From NCBI GenBank assembly GCA_003225555.1, contig QIAM01000026.1, positions 62,001 through 126,000 on the forward strand: a DNA stretch of 64,000 nt. Direction: 5' to 3'. Both the position numbers and the translations under genes were made by a program. The DNA is from Acidobacteriota bacterium (GTDB lineage Bacteria > Acidobacteriota > Terriglobia > Terriglobales > Acidobacteriaceae). Positions 13,370 through 20,799 of the stretch are shown piece after piece. The notes beneath the pieces were generated by a model, which was not told the origin of the DNA, searched no databases, and saw only the letters and a list, made by a program, of their open reading frames with translations. Position 1 is the first letter of the stretch. Each line of letters begins with the position of its first letter.

Positions 13370-14932
13370 CTAAAAGGTGGAATCCGCCTCCAGAGGCATC
13401 TCCCGGATCAATACCCCCTCCCGGCCCGGTTTTGCCTGTAGGCCAGCAGGAGCTGGAAATCCCCGTACCCACACGATCTCGTCCCCGCTTGCGACTACCG
13501 GCCAAAGCCTCCGAGGCTGGCCCGTAATGTGGTGCTCTTGCAGCAATTCCTTAATCTTCTTGGGGGACTTAGTATGGGCCGGCCAGAACCGCTCTCCGGG
13601 ACGCCAGTTTCGCACCCTTAACGGCCCGGGAAGCGACTCTGCGTCGAGGAGGTGCTCGCGATTATACCCCGGCAACTCCGATTCAGCCCGTACGCGTACC
13701 GCTTCAATCACGGTGCCCGTTTCAGGGATGGTGACGCGTCCCGGCAGGGGCAATTCATAGGCGTAATCATGCGGGACTCGCTCTTGCCGTCGGAGGTCGG
13801 GGGTCACGAAAACCAGTGAATCAGTCTCGCGAACCAGCTTCCATCCCAAAGGCAACGAAAGCTCCTTGCCCGAGGCGCCGTCTTCCGCCGCAAATCGCAA
13901 GATTTGCTGCACATGTTTAAACTCGAGCGGAATCCCCGCATGGTCACCCACGGCCTTTACGAGCCGGCGCTGGACCGCTAGAGGTTCGGTGAGAAGCCAG
14001 GCCCGGCTTACCGAAGCATTCATGACCAGAGGCCCCGGTTCCTCCAGGCGACGTTCCAGGTCAGATTTCACCGGCGCGATCTGCACCAATGACGACTCCG
14101 GACTGCCCGAAGTATGAGCTTTCGCCCACTCCGGTTCGGACCACTGCACTGTAGTCCCCAACCATCCTGCGATCTCGTTCTCCCAGTAGTCTTGTTCTCC
14201 GCGCGCGATCTCCGCCAATTCCGCTAGGTTCTCCGCCGTTGAGGGATTGAAGTCGCTCTCAAGTAAGGGCAGGACTCGCTGCCGCATGCGATTGCGCGTG
14301 AATCTTACATCGAGATTGGTCGGATCCTCATGCCAAGGCTGCTTGAGGTCCCTGAGGTATTGCTCCAGCCGAGGCCTACGAATTTCAAGCAAGGGCCGAA
14401 CGATCTCTCCGGAAGTTTCCTCTTCGACATCATCCACCAAGAGTCGGGGATAAATTCCACCGAGGCCTCGTAGCCCGGTGCCACGAATCAGCCTCATCAG
14501 AACCGTCTCGGCCTGATCGTCTAGTGTATGGCCAGTCGCCACCTTGTCGAGACTGACACTAATCTCTGGACCTTCACCCATGAGCCGGCGAAAGAATCCA
14601 TAGCGCAGCTCCCGGGCGGCGGATTCCACGCCAACCTGCCCCCCTGCCGCATGCTGCGCCACATCGCCGCTCTCGGTATGGAATTCCAAGTCGTGTTCAC
14701 GCGCCAGGTTTACAACGAACTCCTGATCTTCGTCTGACTCAGCCCCGCGCAGCTTGTGGTTGAAGTGCACAACGAAGAGGACAATCCCAAGTTCGCTCCT
14801 CACCTCGAGCAGAAGGCGCAGCAGGGCAACGGAATCAATTCCGCCGGAGACCGCCACGCCCACACGGTCTCCCGCCTTCAGCAACTCCTGATGCCGGATG
14901 TATGCGATGAGCCGCTCTGCCAGTGAATGCAC
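13370..14932 (-). CDS. tilS: tRNA(Ile)-lysidine synthetase
   Basis: Modifies C34 of the CAU anticodon of tRNA-Ile to lysidine, switching codon reading from AUG to AUA. The N-type ATP-pyrophosphatase motif SGGIDS follows VGVAVSGG, then FVVHFNHKLRGAESDEDQ and GHTLDDQAETVLMRLIRGTG. C-terminal substrate-binding domains include LRVRNWRPGERFWP and KKIKELLQEHHI. The ORF track opens at 15061, inside the divergent inhibitor gene. GTG 14932 (VHSLAERLIAYIRHQ) gives 520 residues and matches the usual N-terminus, though no clear ribosome-binding site is seen. It heads the tilS-hpt-ftsH run. Confidence 0.93.
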   Translation of the reverse strand: MHSLAERLIAYIRHQELLKAGDRVGVAVSGGIDSVALLRLLLEVRSELGIVLFVVHFNHKLRGAESDEDQEFVVNLAREHDLEFHTESGDVAQHAAGGQVGVESAARELRYGFFRRLMGEGPEISVSLDKVATGHTLDDQAETVLMRLIRGTGLRGLGGIYPRLLVDDVEEETSGEIVRPLLEIRRPRLEQYLRDLKQPWHEDPTNLDVRFTRNRMRQRVLPLLESDFNPSTAENLAELAEIARGEQDYWENEIAGWLGTTVQWSEPEWAKAHTSGSPESSLVQIAPVKSDLERRLEEPGPLVMNASVSRAWLLTEPLAVQRRLVKAVGDHAGIPLEFKHVQQILRFAAEDGASGKELSLPLGWKLVRETDSLVFVTPDLRRQERVPHDYAYELPLPGRVTIPETGTVIEAVRVRAESELPGYNREHLLDAESLPGPLRVRNWRPGERFWPAHTKSPKKIKELLQEHHITGQPRRLWPVVASGDEIVWVRGFPAPAGLQAKPGREGVLIREMPLEADSTF

Positions 14933-14985
14933 GGAAACATGGTACAACCAGTACGGGAAGAGGAGCGCCCAGCTGAAGGTCGCAC

Positions 14986-15306
14986 TTGAAGATGCGATAC
15001 GACGAGAGCGCCAACGGAACCGAGGTTGAAGTCGCCGCCGGGGAAGAGTTCGAGCTTTCACTGCCCGAGACCCGGACCGCTGGCTATCGCTGGACGCTCA
15101 AGAGCGGCGGCGATCCCGCCTGCGCCCTGTTGAACGAGTCCTCTCAATCCCCCCCTGGACAGGTCGGAGGCAGCGGCACGCACTCCTGGCGCTTTCGTGC
15201 CTCCACCCCTGGAGTCTGCTCCATTGCGTTGGAGTACAAACGTTCTTGGGAGGACAGCTCGCAACCGGCGCGGACCTATACTTTAAAGCTCCGCGTCCGG
15301 TCTTGA
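14986..15306 (+). CDS. Chagasin-like cysteine protease inhibitor (I42 family)
   Basis: A 106-residue all-beta protein with the three loop motifs of chagasin-type inhibitors of papain-like proteases: RTAGYRW (residues 30-36, equivalent of NPTTGYxW), GGSGTHSWRFRA (61-72, equivalent of the GxxGxxxWxF loop) and YKRSWE (84-89, equivalent of the RPW loop). It has no signal peptide, so it is probably cytoplasmic unless the start is wrong. The TTG start at 14986 has GAAGG six bases upstream; ATG 14992 is the alternative. It is convergent with a C1 papain-like protease 32 bases away, which makes a cognate pair likely. Confidence 0.85.
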   Translation: MKMRYDESANGTEVEVAAGEEFELSLPETRTAGYRWTLKSGGDPACALLNESSQSPPGQVGGSGTHSWRFRASTPGVCSIALEYKRSWEDSSQPARTYTLKLRVRS

Positions 15307-15337
15307 GCAACGGACCGCACTCGTCGGCGTCTCGTGG

Positions 15338-16147
15338 TTAGTGTTTTTTCTTCTTGGCTGCTGCCTTCTTCGGAGGCTTGCCCCCACCTCCAGCGTCGAC
15401 CAGCCGGATCGTCCAGAGATCATCCGAGAGATTCGGCTCCATGAGGTACTGGTACGGCATGGTGAAGTAGCCCTTCAAACCCCAATGCGGCCCCCAGGAG
15501 TTACGGATAATGAACCATTGATTCTTGTCGTCGTAGCCGACGGCGGTGACCGCGTGTCCTCCAACCACCTTTTCGCCCGGTTGCGGCATCGAGAGGTGTC
15601 CGGAATTTGCTACCTGCGTGCTTTCAAAGCCGTCATACACGGTAAAGCCAAGCACAAACGGATAGCCCGAAGCCAGACATCCCTTGAACTGATTGAGCAC
15701 ACGGCTAACCCGGTGATACGAGGTCACTCTGTTCTTCGAGGCGTCGGTGAAAGCAGCTGTGGGTGGCTTCTCCGTAAATTTGTTGATGTCGTAAGGCCAG
15801 TCAGCCTCCGGCGGAGCCCCCAGCTTGGCCACAACTTTGATCCCGTCACGAATCTGGGCCCCGGCATCGGAGTTGACGGAATGCTCGATGACGCGTTCGT
15901 TGTAGTAAATGAACAACCGCGACGGAACAAAGTCAGTGAGCTTTTGCTTGAGCCGCTCAAACTCGATGGCCCCGGCGATCGCATTGCCAGCGCAGCTTCC
16001 CAGCTGTCCTTGATCGTAAACGGGTGGACACTGCGGACGAAGATCCACCGCCGTTGGAAGCGCCATGATAAACGGCGCAGGAGCCGAATAAACGAGGTCG
16101 CGCTGGTCCGGTAAATCCGGAACCCACCCATAATGTCCAATGCTCAT
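15338..16147 (-). CDS. Papain-like C1 family cysteine peptidase
   Basis: A 269-residue C1A-fold peptidase. The catalytic elements are in order: oxyanion Gln46 and nucleophile Cys52 in YDQGQLGSCAGNA, His198 in VGGHAVTAVGY, Asn216 in IIRNSWG followed by GLKGYFTMPYQYL. The start MSIGHYGWVPDLPDQRDLVY has no signal peptide. There is only a ~40-residue stretch before the active-site loop, so a separate inhibitory prodomain is absent. The C-terminus is an unusual Lys-rich tail (GGGGKPPKKAAAKKKKH). The neighbouring convergent gene encodes a chagasin-like inhibitor, which could control this enzyme in place of a prodomain. All active-site residues are intact. Confidence 0.92.
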   Translation of the reverse strand: MSIGHYGWVPDLPDQRDLVYSAPAPFIMALPTAVDLRPQCPPVYDQGQLGSCAGNAIAGAIEFERLKQKLTDFVPSRLFIYYNERVIEHSVNSDAGAQIRDGIKVVAKLGAPPEADWPYDINKFTEKPPTAAFTDASKNRVTSYHRVSRVLNQFKGCLASGYPFVLGFTVYDGFESTQVANSGHLSMPQPGEKVVGGHAVTAVGYDDKNQWFIIRNSWGPHWGLKGYFTMPYQYLMEPNLSDDLWTIRLVDAGGGGKPPKKAAAKKKKH

Positions 16148-16446: not shown

Positions 16447-18393
16447 TTACAACCCCGGGCTCTTCTCCGAAATTAGCTTCTTGATCTTCTCTACGAATTC
16501 CACTGCCGCCATGTCTTCCGTCTTCTCTTTTCCCCGGCTGCGGACATTCACCTTCCCCGCCTCCGCCTCTTTGTCCCCGACCACCAGCAGGAAGGGCACT
16601 TTCTGCATCGCATGCTCGCGGATCTTCGCATTCATCTTCTCGTTGCGCGCATCCACTTCCACACGTACTCCTACTGACTTCAGTTGCGCAGCTACCTTAT
16701 TCGCGTACTCCGCATGCCGTTCGCTAATCGGAATCATGACCGCCTGCACCGGCGACAGCCACACCGGGAACGCGCCCGCATAGTGCTCGATCAGCACGCC
16801 GAAGAAGCGCTCCACCGAACCGTAGAGGGCGCGATGCACCATCACCGGCTGCTTGCGTGAGCCATCTTCCGCCACGTATTCCAGGCCGAATCGCTGCGGC
16901 AGATTGAAGTCGAACTGCACTGTCGAGAGTTGCCATAGCCGCCCGATCGCATCCACCAGCTTGATGTCGATTTTCGGCCCGTAGAACGCCGCTTCGCCAG
17001 GCATGGTCTTGTATTCGATCCCTTGCTGTTTCAGCACCTTCTCCAGAGACTGGGTCGCGTGGTTCCACTGATCTTCGCTGCCCACGAAATTCTTGCGGTC
17101 GTCCGGATTCCACGTCGATAGCTCGGTCTGAAACTTGTCGAAACCAAAATCTTTCAGCACGTCCAGAGCAAACTCCAGGCAGGCCGCAATCTCGCCCTCG
17201 ATCTGCTCCGGAGTACAGAAGATGTGGGCGTCGTCTTGGGTGAAGCCACGCACGCGCAGCAGGCCGTGCATCACGCCGGAGCGCTCGTAGCGATAAACCG
17301 TTCCCAGTTCGCCCAAACGCACCGGCAGATCGCGATATGACTTCAGCGAATCCCGGTAGATCAGTATGTGGCCGGGACAATTCATGGGCTTCAGGCGATA
17401 TTCCGCGTCATCGAGCTCCATGGCGTCGAACATATTCTGCGAGTAGTAGCCTTCGTGTCCCGACGTGAAGAACAACTGCCGCCTAGCCACATGTGGAGTA
17501 GAGACCAGAGCGTAGCCGCGCTTCAGATACTCGGCACGCATCCAGTCTTCCATCTCTTTGCGGATGATCCCGCCCTTGGGATGCCAAAAAATCAGTCCCG
17601 GCCCCGCTAGCTCCTGAATCGAAAACAGATCCAGCTGCTTGCCCAACACACGATGGTCGCGCTTCTTCGCTTCGTCGACCTGCTTCAGATAATCGTCGAG
17701 ATCTTTCTTCGAGAAGAACGACGTCCCGTAAATGCGCTGCAGCTGCGGATTCTTCTCATCCCCCAGCCAATAGGCTCCGGCAATGTTGAGCAGCTTGAAC
17801 GCCTTGATCTTGCCGGTCGACGGGATGTGCGGACCGCGGCAGAAGTCCGTGAATTTCCCGGTGCGGTAGATCGAAATCTTTTCATCGGACTTGGTGAACT
17901 GCTCGATGAAATGGCACTTCATGAAGTCGCCTTCTTTTTTAAACTCCGCCAGCCCCTGCTCGCGTGGCAGAAACTCCCGCGCATAGGGGATGTTCTGCTG
18001 CACCAGTTCCTGCATCTTCTTCTCGATTTTCTCGAGATCCTCCGGGGTGAATGGAGTCGGCCGGTAGAAGTCGTAGAAGAATCCGTTTTCGGTAGACGGT
18101 CCATGGCCGAGCTTGGTCTCAGGGAAGAGTTCCAGAACAGCTGCTGCCAGCAGGTGAGCCGAGGAGTGCCGGTAAACTTCCAGCGCCTCCGGATCCTTGT
18201 CAGTCAGAATGCGGAGTTCGGCGTCCCTCTCCAAGGGGCGGGTCAGATCAATAAGATTCCCATTGTCCTTGGCGGCGAGCGCCGCATCCGCCAGCCGCGG
18301 ACTAATAGACTTTGCAATATCGAGCGCGGTCGTGCCCTTGGGAACTTCCTTCACGCTCCCATCGGGGAGCTTCACATGAATGCTGTCTGCCAT
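16447..18393 (-). CDS. thrS: Threonine--tRNA ligase
   Basis: Class II synthetase charging tRNA-Thr. Domains in order: N-terminal TGS domain (HVKLPDGSVKEVPKGTTALDIA, residues 5-65), the second additional/editing domain with the zinc-like HxxxH motif YRHSSAHLLAAAV and FCRGPHIPSTGKI, the catalytic core (MNCPGHILIY, RYERSGVMHGLLRVRGFTQDDAH, motif 3 region MVHRALYGSVERFFGVLIEHYAG) and a C-terminal anticodon-binding domain. At 648 residues it is full length. A conserved Cys, His pair for catalytic zinc is present (MNCPGH and later HRALYG). It appears monocistronic. Confidence 0.97.
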   Translation of the reverse strand: MADSIHVKLPDGSVKEVPKGTTALDIAKSISPRLADAALAAKDNGNLIDLTRPLERDAELRILTDKDPEALEVYRHSSAHLLAAAVLELFPETKLGHGPSTENGFFYDFYRPTPFTPEDLEKIEKKMQELVQQNIPYAREFLPREQGLAEFKKEGDFMKCHFIEQFTKSDEKISIYRTGKFTDFCRGPHIPSTGKIKAFKLLNIAGAYWLGDEKNPQLQRIYGTSFFSKKDLDDYLKQVDEAKKRDHRVLGKQLDLFSIQELAGPGLIFWHPKGGIIRKEMEDWMRAEYLKRGYALVSTPHVARRQLFFTSGHEGYYSQNMFDAMELDDAEYRLKPMNCPGHILIYRDSLKSYRDLPVRLGELGTVYRYERSGVMHGLLRVRGFTQDDAHIFCTPEQIEGEIAACLEFALDVLKDFGFDKFQTELSTWNPDDRKNFVGSEDQWNHATQSLEKVLKQQGIEYKTMPGEAAFYGPKIDIKLVDAIGRLWQLSTVQFDFNLPQRFGLEYVAEDGSRKQPVMVHRALYGSVERFFGVLIEHYAGAFPVWLSPVQAVMIPISERHAEYANKVAAQLKSVGVRVEVDARNEKMNAKIREHAMQKVPFLLVVGDKEAEAGKVNVRSRGKEKTEDMAAVEFVEKIKKLISEKSPGL

Positions 18394-18764: not shown

Positions 18765-20261
18765 TTACTTTTGGTGCGCTACGTCCTTGATATGGGTCGC
18801 GATGTACCACGTATTCCCGAACGAATCGGTAACCCCCGCGCTGCGGTCTCCATAAGTCTGCTCTGCCGGCTCCTGGATCGACTTCGCTCCCGCCGCCAGA
18901 GCCCGCTTATAAACCGCGTCGCACTCGGGCACGTACACATAGAACATCGATTGCATGGGTTGGTAAATCCCGTGCGCCTCGCCCATTTCGACCACCGAAT
19001 CGCCGACGCGAATCTCGGCGTGATGAACCACTCCATCGGGCGAAGCGTACTTCGCAAGTTCCTGCGCGCCGAAGGCACGCTTCAGGAAGCCGATTACCGG
19101 CTCCGCCCGCAGCGGATGCATGTACACATTCACGTTGTGCAACCCCTTCGGGATATACCGTTCGCCCGTGTGCGTAGCGATGTACCAGTAGTTGCCGAAG
19201 GGATCCTTGACCCCCGCGCCCCGCTCGCCGTATTCGTGATCCTGGGGCTCGCCGATCGAAGTTGCTCCGGCTTGCAGAGCCTTCTGATAGGCCGCATCCG
19301 TGTCCTCCACATAAATGTGCAATGCCGTCGTGTTCGGCTTGCCGTGGAACGGCTTGCCCGGAATTCCTCCGCCCATCATTAGCATGGCGTCGCCGATGCG
19401 AGTCTCGGCGTGGATTCCTCCCGCTCCACCAGCGATCCGGAAAGTCTCTTCCGCGCCAAACGCATTTTTCGCGAACGCCAGTATCGCATCCGCGTCGGGC
19501 GCAATCATGTAAGGCGTCACAGTATGGAAGCCGCGCGGAACCGGGTTCACCGCAGGTTTCTTCGCCGCTGCATCGCCCCCCGTCATCGCATCCATGCGCC
19601 GGTGCATCTCCTCGACCGACATCTCTTCCTGGATCGTGGACACAGACCACGAGTACCCGAACGGATCCTGAATCGTTCCTTCGCGGCGTCCGTAAAACTG
19701 ATCCGCAATCGGAATCACGATCTTGGCGCCGGCACCAATGGCACGGGAGACAAAACCGTCCACGTCAGGTACATTCAGCGCCATCATGACGGGTGAATTT
19801 CCCAGCGTCTCCGGACTGAACCGGCCGCCTTCCGGCCACTCTTCGGTCAGCATGACGGGGGAGTCTCCAATCTTGATTTGGGCGTGCGGAATTTTCCCGC
19901 CAACTTCGAAGCGCATAACTTCTTGCGCGCCGAAAGCATTCTTATAGAACTCAATGGCCTTGGCCGCATCTTTGAAGGTCAATCTCGGGCTTGCGACGGT
20001 ACGAACGGCTGCAATCGGTTCAGCAACGGTGCTCATAGTCTTTCTCCCTTCCAGTAATCTGGCTTTCAGTCTGGTCTTGAAATCTTCACGCGGCAGATCG
20101 CGCAAGTTCGCCGCCACACGCACCAGCGGCTCGACGGTGGCATCCACTTTGGGAAGCCTGCCGTCGACCCGGGCCAGCATCGCGTCGACAGCCCGGTTTA
20201 GTTGCTCCATCCTGCGTGCGTTGTTCCTTCCCGGATTCAGAGAGTGCTTAGGCATCGGCAC
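18765..20261 (-). CDS. Triple VOC/glyoxalase-like domain protein with helical N-terminal leader
   Basis: A 498-residue protein with three PhnB-like VOC units: about 90-215 (IEFYKNAFGAQEVMRFEVGG to GTIQDPFGYSWSVST), 248-368 (ILAFAKNAFGAEETFRI to GVKDPFGNYWYIATH) and 375-492 (IGFLKRAFGAQELAKYA to GVTDSFGNTWYIATH). The N-terminal ~75 residues are different: helical and charged (MEQLNRAVDAMLARVDGR, VRVAANLRDLPREDFKTRLKARLLE). They resemble short leader regions in proteins encoded beside ECF sigma factors. The gene start overlaps the upstream ECF sigma gene by 14 bases, implying translational coupling. Metal ligands and substrate are not identifiable. An anti-sigma-like role of the leader is inference. 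Confidence 0.85.
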   Translation of the reverse strand: MPMPKHSLNPGRNNARRMEQLNRAVDAMLARVDGRLPKVDATVEPLVRVAANLRDLPREDFKTRLKARLLEGRKTMSTVAEPIAAVRTVASPRLTFKDAAKAIEFYKNAFGAQEVMRFEVGGKIPHAQIKIGDSPVMLTEEWPEGGRFSPETLGNSPVMMALNVPDVDGFVSRAIGAGAKIVIPIADQFYGRREGTIQDPFGYSWSVSTIQEEMSVEEMHRRMDAMTGGDAAAKKPAVNPVPRGFHTVTPYMIAPDADAILAFAKNAFGAEETFRIAGGAGGIHAETRIGDAMLMMGGGIPGKPFHGKPNTTALHIYVEDTDAAYQKALQAGATSIGEPQDHEYGERGAGVKDPFGNYWYIATHTGERYIPKGLHNVNVYMHPLRAEPVIGFLKRAFGAQELAKYASPDGVVHHAEIRVGDSVVEMGEAHGIYQPMQSMFYVYVPECDAVYKRALAAGAKSIQEPAEQTYGDRSAGVTDSFGNTWYIATHIKDVAHQK

Positions 20262-20799
20262 CCTCCATGCGCTCCCGCAGGCTGCTGAGCGCGCGGAACT
20301 GTAACTGTTTCACCGCGCCCTCACTCTTGCGGGTTTCCCGCGCCACTTCCTTGATACTTTTCTGCTCCACAAACCTCAGAACCACTACCCGACGCTGCTC
20401 GGCGGGCAGGCTCTCCACCAGGCGGAACAATGTAGCTTTCCGCTCGACCTCTTCGATTTCCGCAGGACTGGCTTGCGCCGACTCGATCTGCTGCGGATCG
20501 TCGGCCATCTGCTCGCGCCCCGACCGCTGCCAGCGATCGGAGATCAAATTTGCCGCAATCCGAAACAGCCACGCCGAGAACGGAATCCCCCGCCACTCGA
20601 ATCGCTTCAAATTCGCCAACGCCTGATGAAAGACCTCCGAAGTCAGATCTTCCGTTTCCGTCCGGTTTCCCACGCGCCGCACCACGTAGGCGTAAACACG
20701 CGCGAAGTTATTCTCATAGAGTTCGGCAAAGCGGGACGGATCCTTTTGCGCAGCCTCAATCAGAAGCCGCTCGTCCGCCTCTTTCTTCAGAACCTTCAA
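20248..20799 (-). CDS. ECF-type RNA polymerase sigma factor
   Basis: A 183-residue sigma-70 family factor with region 2 (FAELYENNFARVYAYVVRRVGNRTETEDLTSEVFHQAL, FSAWLFRIAANLISDRW) and region 4 (VESLPAEQRRVVVLRFVEQKSIKEVARETRKSEGAVKQLQFRALSSLRERM). Region 3 is absent, as in ECF factors. Its 3' end overlaps the triple-VOC gene by 14 bases, and no classical anti-sigma gene is adjacent, so the VOC protein is the obvious candidate partner. Confidence 0.93.
   Translation of the reverse strand: MKVLKKEADERLLIEAAQKDPSRFAELYENNFARVYAYVVRRVGNRTETEDLTSEVFHQALANLKRFEWRGIPFSAWLFRIAANLISDRWQRSGREQMADDPQQIESAQASPAEIEEVERKATLFRLVESLPAEQRRVVVLRFVEQKSIKEVARETRKSEGAVKQLQFRALSSLRERMEGADA

What the first reader, a model, noticed from the sequence alone, without database searches (positions are those of the whole stretch)
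14986..16147. Papain-like C1 protease convergent with a chagasin-type inhibitor
Seen: intact Gln46/Cys52/His198/Asn216 papain active site, and 32 bases away a 106-residue protein with all three chagasin loops. The protease lacks a long prodomain and a signal peptide and ends in a poly-Lys tail. Known: I42 inhibitors block C1 proteases. Inference: the pair is a self-contained intracellular protease and antidote, or a regulated proteolysis module; the convergent layout would also allow antisense control. I am not aware of such a pair being described in Acidobacteria.
Basis: partly seen in the sequence, partly recalled or inferred. Interest (0 to 1): 0.75.

Follow-up and report, generated by a model that had tools for sequence, protein, structure and literature searches.

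The report
Papain-like protease with paired chagasin-like inhibitor
A soil bacterium carries, end to end, a gene for a papain-like protein-cutting enzyme and a gene for a small protein of a family that blocks such enzymes; the same pair, in the same end-to-end layout, recurs in at least four bacterial phyla, so it is probably a real enzyme-and-brake module and gives bacterial chagasins a concrete target to test.

Summary
Window 14992-15306 (+) encodes a leaderless 104-aa I42 (chagasin-family) protein. 15338-16147 (-) encodes a leaderless 269-aa C1 protease, closest solved relative xylellain, with an intact Gln/Cys/His/Asn active site. The genome has one C1 and one I42, and they lie tail to tail 31 bp apart.

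The proposed refuter fails: adjacency is conserved. In Acidobacteriota 13 of 30 I42-bearing genomes have C1 within about 2 kb (0.05 expected). Of the 80 best xylellain-type C1 loci found in public genomes, 14 have I42 beside them, 12 of these tail to tail. Intact leaderless I42s sit beside a C1 almost without exception (14 of 15); exported ones rarely do (about 8 of 108). Two I42s of this type without a C1 (G037, G155) are broken relics.

The dependence is one-way: 66 of the 80 proteases have no I42 beside them, and 38 of 50 such genomes have none at all. I therefore reject an obligate toxin-antidote and prefer a dedicated cytosolic brake, working like staphostatin on staphopain. Inhibition itself is inferred. 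No description of a C1/I42 gene pair was found in the open-access library. New variant of a known kind.

The parts
14992..15306 (+). I42 (chagasin-family) inhibitor gene, 104 aa, leaderless; alternative start TTG 14986
   Evidence: Pfam PF09394 76.6 bits; model pLDDT 91.9, Foldseek top hits EhICP2 and chagasin, TM 0.84-0.87
15067..15087 (+). inhibitor loop L2 (ETRTAGY; NPTTGF in chagasin)
   Evidence: alignment to chagasin and P. aeruginosa ICP; G31 invariant
15163..15180 (+). inhibitor loop L4 (VGGSGT)
   Evidence: G59, G62 invariant
15235..15252 (+). inhibitor loop L6 (YKRSWE; RPW in chagasin)
   Evidence: R84, W86 invariant
15307..15337 (.). 31-bp intergenic spacer between the two stop codons; no terminator-like hairpin found
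15338..16147 (-). xylellain-type C1 cysteine protease gene, 269 aa, leaderless
   Evidence: Pfam PF00112 56.7 bits; PDB 3ois E 3.5e-69
16061..16147 (-). N-terminal segment (residues 1-29) of the protease, homologous to the N-terminal segment of xylellain; presumed built-in gate
   Evidence: alignment to 3ois from residue 5; motif in 17/17 complete I42-paired and 70/76 unpaired homologues
15992..15994 (-). catalytic Cys52 codon (oxyanion Gln46 codon at 16010-16012)
   Evidence: invariant
15554..15556 (-). catalytic His198 codon
   Evidence: invariant
15500..15502 (-). catalytic Asn216 codon
   Evidence: invariant
15341..15397 (-). Lys-rich C-terminal tail of the protease (residues 251-269)
   Evidence: shared with G011, G035 and L155 only among I42-paired homologues
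13370..14937 (-). tilS (context; start approximate), divergent from the I42 gene
   Evidence: PF01171, PF11734; thrS-tilS is conserved synteny in the genus
16447..18393 (-). thrS (context), upstream of and co-directional with the protease gene

Best explanation
A two-gene cytosolic module. The C1 gene makes a xylellain-type papain protease without a signal peptide whose short N-terminal segment probably partly covers its own active site. The I42 protein, also made in the cytosol, binds the active-site cleft of its neighbour with its three loops as a tight, reversible, non-substrate inhibitor and keeps any prematurely active protease silent until it is released (lysis or leaderless export) or the inhibitor is removed. 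The inhibitor is an optional second lock that depends on the protease; the protease does not depend on the inhibitor. Shown: both families, catalytic residues and loops, lack of leaders, conserved adjacency and layout across phyla, one-way dependence. Inferred: direct binding and inhibition, cytosolic location, the trigger and the substrates.
For: One C1 and one I42 in the genome, side by side. Acidobacteriota: 13 of 30 I42 genomes have C1 within about 2 kb; expected 0.05, Poisson p 3e-27. The best 80 xylellain-type loci in public genomes: I42 is the most recurrent neighbour family (14 loci), 12 tail to tail (two of these with the I42 reading frame split), in Acidobacteriota, Pseudomonadota, Verrucomicrobiota and Chloroflexota plus an archaeal-labelled MAG. 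Independent I42-first surveys of Acetobacterales, Verrucomicrobiota and Chloroflexota found five such tail-to-tail pairs, three of them new: L292, L303, L366. Leaderless I42: automated count 14/21 beside C1 against 8/104 exported, p 1.8e-8; by eye, of the 7 unpaired, 4 carry lipoprotein leaders, 2 are broken fragments and 1 is ambiguous. Compartments mostly match within pairs: exported C1 with exported I42, leaderless with leaderless. Relics: G037 keeps a damaged I42 between thrS and tilS and no C1; G155 has a truncated I42 and no C1. C1 and I42 distances correlate in the 14 tail-to-tail pairs (r 0.48, p 2e-4; thinned to 11, r 0.39, p 0.016). I42 inhibits C1 proteases in every solved complex listed in PMC7863939.
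Against: No inhibition or complex was measured or modelled. The mirror-tree signal weakens on further thinning (9 pairs, p 0.065) and is absent when the two tandem pairs are included (r 0.11, p 0.18). Most homologous proteases lack the inhibitor. An intact leaderless I42 (L324) lies away from C1, though its genome does hold a xylellain-type C1. L2 is TRTAG rather than NPTTG. Many loci are MAG contigs, so lineage labels can be wrong.
Confidence: 0.72

Rival explanations
1. Obligate toxin-antidote: the protease kills its own cell unless I42 is present, so the pair behaves as a toxin-antitoxin system or addiction module.
For: Adjacent, leaderless, sporadic in the genus (3 intact of 45 genomes), horizontally spread; I42 decays when C1 is gone, as an antitoxin would.
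Against: 66 of 80 close homologues of the protease have no I42 neighbour and 38 of 50 such genomes have no I42 at all. Genes are convergent, not an operon with the antidote first.
Confidence: 0.1
2. The I42 protein is aimed at foreign C1 proteases (phage-borne, or of predators or hosts) and sits beside a C1 gene because both belong to a conflict locus.
For: Xylellain-like proteases occur in phages such as Burkholderia phage FLC9; a P. syringae I42 inhibits plant proteases (PMC5014320).
Against: The tail-to-tail I42s lack export signals, are a distinct subfamily tied to one protease type, and those found without a C1 (G037, G155) are broken.
Confidence: 0.08
3. The I42 protein is a folding helper, stabiliser or localiser of the protease rather than an inhibitor.
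For: Adjacency and co-inheritance are equally expected.
Against: The three inhibitory loops are kept, and most homologous proteases manage without it.
Confidence: 0.06
4. The convergent layout itself is the regulator: overlapping 3' transcripts or colliding polymerases make expression of one gene damp the other, in addition to or instead of protein-level inhibition.
For: Layout is strongly biased: about 18 convergent to 2 tandem with xylellain-type C1 against 1 to 18 with other C1 types (Fisher p 6e-8; pair counts taken by hand); stop codons 31 bp apart here and overlapping in L230 and L232; no terminator found.
Against: The layout bias is also explained by descent of one cassette; no transcript data.
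Confidence: 0.12
5. Chance neighbours.
For: None beyond the sporadic distribution in the genus.
Against: Recurrence far above expectation.
Confidence: 0.01

Closest known systems
Staphopain-staphostatin (C47/I57) of Staphylococcus aureus
   Same: papain-fold protease with a linked gene for a small cytoplasmic inhibitor thought to guard the cell against premature activity (PMC3462683 and references in it)
   Different: different protease and inhibitor families, co-directional operon, protease exported with a leader and propeptide; here both leaderless and convergent
SpeB-Spi (C10) and Bacteroides Bfp/Bfi, Btp/Bti pairs
   Same: linked gene for a small inhibitor of a papain-fold protease; [quoted passage not shown]
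   Different: C10 proteases; staphostatin-like or propeptide-like inhibitors, mostly co-transcribed; not I42
Xylellain (3ois) and xylellain-like peptidases
   Same: closest protease family over the full length, including the N-terminal segment; no signal peptide
   Different: no inhibitor partner is mentioned in the open-access papers found (PMC12090721, PMC10380794)
Chagasin / P. aeruginosa ICP / P. syringae Cip1 (I42)
   Same: same inhibitor family and loops
   Different: those bacterial members were tested only on eukaryotic proteases in the papers read (PMC2784779, PMC5014320); here a linked bacterial target is proposed

Membership tests
Peptidase family C1 (xylellain-type) | C1 profile above curated cut-off | tested here: met
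   56.7 bits against 20.7
Peptidase family C1 (xylellain-type) | Gln, Cys, His, Asn catalytic residues | tested here: met
   Q46, C52, H198, N216 invariant
Peptidase family C1 (xylellain-type) | short N-terminal segment instead of a long propeptide | tested here: met
   aligned to xylellain from residue 5; motif conserved
Peptidase family C1 (xylellain-type) | proteolytic activity | not testable with these tools
   no assay
Inhibitor family I42 | I42 profile above curated cut-off | tested here: met
   76.6 bits against 27.2; NCBIfam gives no name
Inhibitor family I42 | three inhibitory loops | tested here: met
   L2, L4, L6 aligned with chagasin; key G31, G59, G62, R84, W86 kept
Inhibitor family I42 | Ig-like fold | tested here: met
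   model pLDDT 91.9; TM 0.84 to chagasin
Inhibitor family I42 | inhibits C1 proteases | not testable with these tools
   no assay
Staphopain-staphostatin type pair | linked small inhibitor gene | tested here: met
Staphopain-staphostatin type pair | co-directional, co-transcribed genes | tested here: not met
   convergent genes
Staphopain-staphostatin type pair | C47 protease and I57 inhibitor | tested here: not met
   C1 and I42
Toxin-antitoxin system | toxin not found without its antidote | tested here: not met
   66/80 proteases without adjacent I42; 38/50 of those genomes without any I42
Toxin-antitoxin system | toxic when expressed alone | not testable with these tools
   no assay

The most novel reading that the evidence does not exclude
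A horizontally mobile, tail-to-tail C1/I42 cassette of at least four phyla in which inhibitor and protease are coupled at two levels, by protein inhibition and by overlapping convergent transcripts, and which together with the related HTH / M78-I42 fusion / C1 operons represents a wider class of intracellular protease-brake systems, possibly used in phage defence or programmed proteolysis.
Probability: 0.15. Interest if true: 0.8.

Novelty: new variant of a known kind. Interest (0 to 1): 0.58.

Why it matters
What bacterial chagasins inhibit has been open: the papers read report inhibition of eukaryotic proteases only, with their own proteases as one proposal (PMC2784779). A conserved linked pair names a cognate target for a whole leaderless I42 subfamily and makes the question testable with one enzyme assay. 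It also extends the theme of linked inhibitors of bacterial papain-fold proteases from C10/C47 to C1 with an I42 partner, and gives xylellain-type proteases, whose substrate was still called unknown in PMC12090721, a possible control mechanism.

Tried and rejected
Chance adjacency: rejected. Obligate antidote: rejected on the proteases without I42. Search for another small neighbour replacing I42 in the unpaired loci: only lineage-specific neighbours found. Plasmid search for the I42: no match; plasmid and phage homologues of the protease that I opened show no annotated I42 neighbour. PADLOC: no hit for either protein of the pair. My first automatic leader calls miscounted several I42s; redone with an anchor on the GY/F-x-W motif and inspected by eye. 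AlphaFold model of the protease from 20 sequences is poor (pLDDT 61.7), so the position of its N-terminal segment was not read from it. Promoter and terminator scan gave nothing. A complex could not be modelled: the structure tool folds one protein at a time and takes only unchanged sequences.

Full report
OBSERVATION. The window carries a 104-residue I42 protein on the + strand (14992-15306) and a 269-residue C1 protease on the - strand (15338-16147), stop codon to stop codon across 31 bp. Both families are far above Pfam's curated cut-offs. The protease's best solved relative is xylellain of Xylella fastidiosa (3ois, E 3.5e-69), aligned from residue 5 to 250, N-terminal segment included. Gln46, Cys52, His198 and Asn216 are invariant. 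The inhibitor aligns with P. aeruginosa ICP, amoebiasin and chagasin through all three loops, and its model is confident and chagasin-like (pLDDT 91.9; TM 0.84). Neither protein has a signal peptide. Relatives start at the ATG at 14992.

CONTEXT. The pair lies between tilS and thrS. This synteny is common in the genus; G000 and G035 hold the pair between the two genes, G011 beside tilS, and most other genomes hold thrS-tilS without it. G037 keeps only a damaged I42 there, with the middle missing, and has no C1 in its genome. The pair was therefore gained or lost as a unit within the genus.

IS ADJACENCY CONSERVED? In 81 near relatives, 6 of the 7 genomes with an I42 have a C1 close by on the same contig: three tail to tail (G000, G011, G035) and three tandem. 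In 396 Acidobacteriota genomes, 13 of 30 with an I42 over the cut-off have C1 within about 2 kb, where 0.05 are expected. A scan of public genomes with the protease alignment gave 80 best loci in many phyla. I42 is the most recurrent neighbour family: 14 loci, 12 tail to tail and 2 tandem, with the stop codons overlapping or only tens of bases apart in most. In two of the 12 (L183, L212) the I42 frame is split, by mutation or sequencing error. Surveys started from I42 in Acetobacterales, Verrucomicrobiota and Chloroflexota, blind to C1, found further tail-to-tail pairs (L292, L303, L366). About 19 such pairs are now seen, 17 of them with an intact I42.

A DISTINCT SUBFAMILY TIED TO ONE PROTEASE TYPE. 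The tail-to-tail I42s share features beyond the family (GEPxC, GxHxW), lack leaders in most cases (L183 and L206 have possible ones), and in the surveys every intact single-domain member that scores highly with their profile lies tail to tail with a xylellain-type C1. Other C1 types have mostly tandem I42s (layout 18:2 against 1:18, p 6e-8; these counts were taken by hand). Compartments mostly match in both classes. Automated leader calls give 14 of 21 leaderless I42s beside C1 against 8 of 104 exported, p 1.8e-8. Inspected by eye, four of the seven unpaired have lipoprotein leaders further upstream, two are broken (L052 in G155, L378) and one (L054) is unclear. L324 is an intact leaderless I42 away from C1, in a genome that has a xylellain-type C1 elsewhere.

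EVOLUTION. On the protease tree the I42 label needs about 11 changes, at least 4 forced by strong branches, and is more clustered than in any of 500 shuffles. Pair distances correlate in the 14 tail-to-tail pairs (r 0.48, p 2e-4), less after thinning. The two tandem xylellain-type pairs (L180, L211) carry very different I42s and look like separate acquisitions. This fits a cassette that moves and loses its inhibitor often.

ONE-WAY DEPENDENCE. 66 of 80 proteases have no I42 beside them, and of 50 such genomes 38 have no I42 over the cut-off. The protease is thus tolerated alone, possibly because its N-terminal segment gates the active site; this is known for xylellain (Leite et al. 2013, from memory; the paper itself was not read here), and the segment is kept in paired and unpaired proteases alike. 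Conversely the tail-to-tail-type I42s without C1 are relics. So the inhibitor serves the protease and not the reverse.

MECHANISM. Most likely a cytosolic brake: the three loops fill the cleft of the adjacent protease, reversibly, as in the solved chagasin complexes listed in PMC7863939. Release could be by lysis or leaderless export (a non-classical route was predicted for xylellain-like peptidases in PMC12090721), or by removal of I42. Direct inhibition, location and trigger are inferred. The layout leaves transcriptional coupling open; no terminator was found between the genes.

KNOWN. Linked inhibitors of bacterial papain-fold proteases are an established theme (staphostatins, Spi, Bfi/Bti; PMC3462683). 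They are co-directional and use other families. Searches of the open-access library found no C1/I42 gene pair in bacteria; subscription papers are not covered, notably Rigden et al. 2002, which could not be opened. Hence a new variant of a known kind.

Noticed in passing
L089:10575-12588 (G004), L101:7301-9287 (G359), L250 (G473), L249 (G722): Compact operons (4-bp gene overlap between the last two): HTH protein (CapH/RmrA-like), a fusion of an ImmA/IrrE-type M78 protease (CapP-like) with a C-terminal I42 domain, then a ~212-aa leaderless C1 protease (HTH and M78 domains tested in G004 and G359 only). In G004 MazG-type and HerA-like genes follow, as in a defence island. I found no description of it.
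   Followed up: partly
G101:C180:8247-9221; L325:1-1914: I42 and C1 domains in one open reading frame (fusion proteins).
   Followed up: no
L103:2117-2383 (G037); L052:1384-1704 (G155): Decayed I42 genes in genomes without a C1 protease.
   Followed up: yes
L091 (G340), L238-L310 survey: Exported C1 with exported I42 in tandem, divergent and (G340) convergent layouts: a parallel secreted version of the pair.
   Followed up: partly
LC667451.1:151538-152320 (Burkholderia phage FLC9); LR756511.1:449283-450017: Close xylellain-type proteases (44-53% identity) in very large phages, the FLC9 one annotated as hypothetical.
   Followed up: no
window 15341-15397: Lys-rich C-terminal tail of the protease; similar tails appear in several Bacteroidota homologues but not in most others.
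   Followed up: no
window 18765-20799: A 498-aa protein that looks like three repeated VOC/glyoxalase-type domains follows an apparent sigma-70-type factor gene; judged from the translation only.
   Followed up: no
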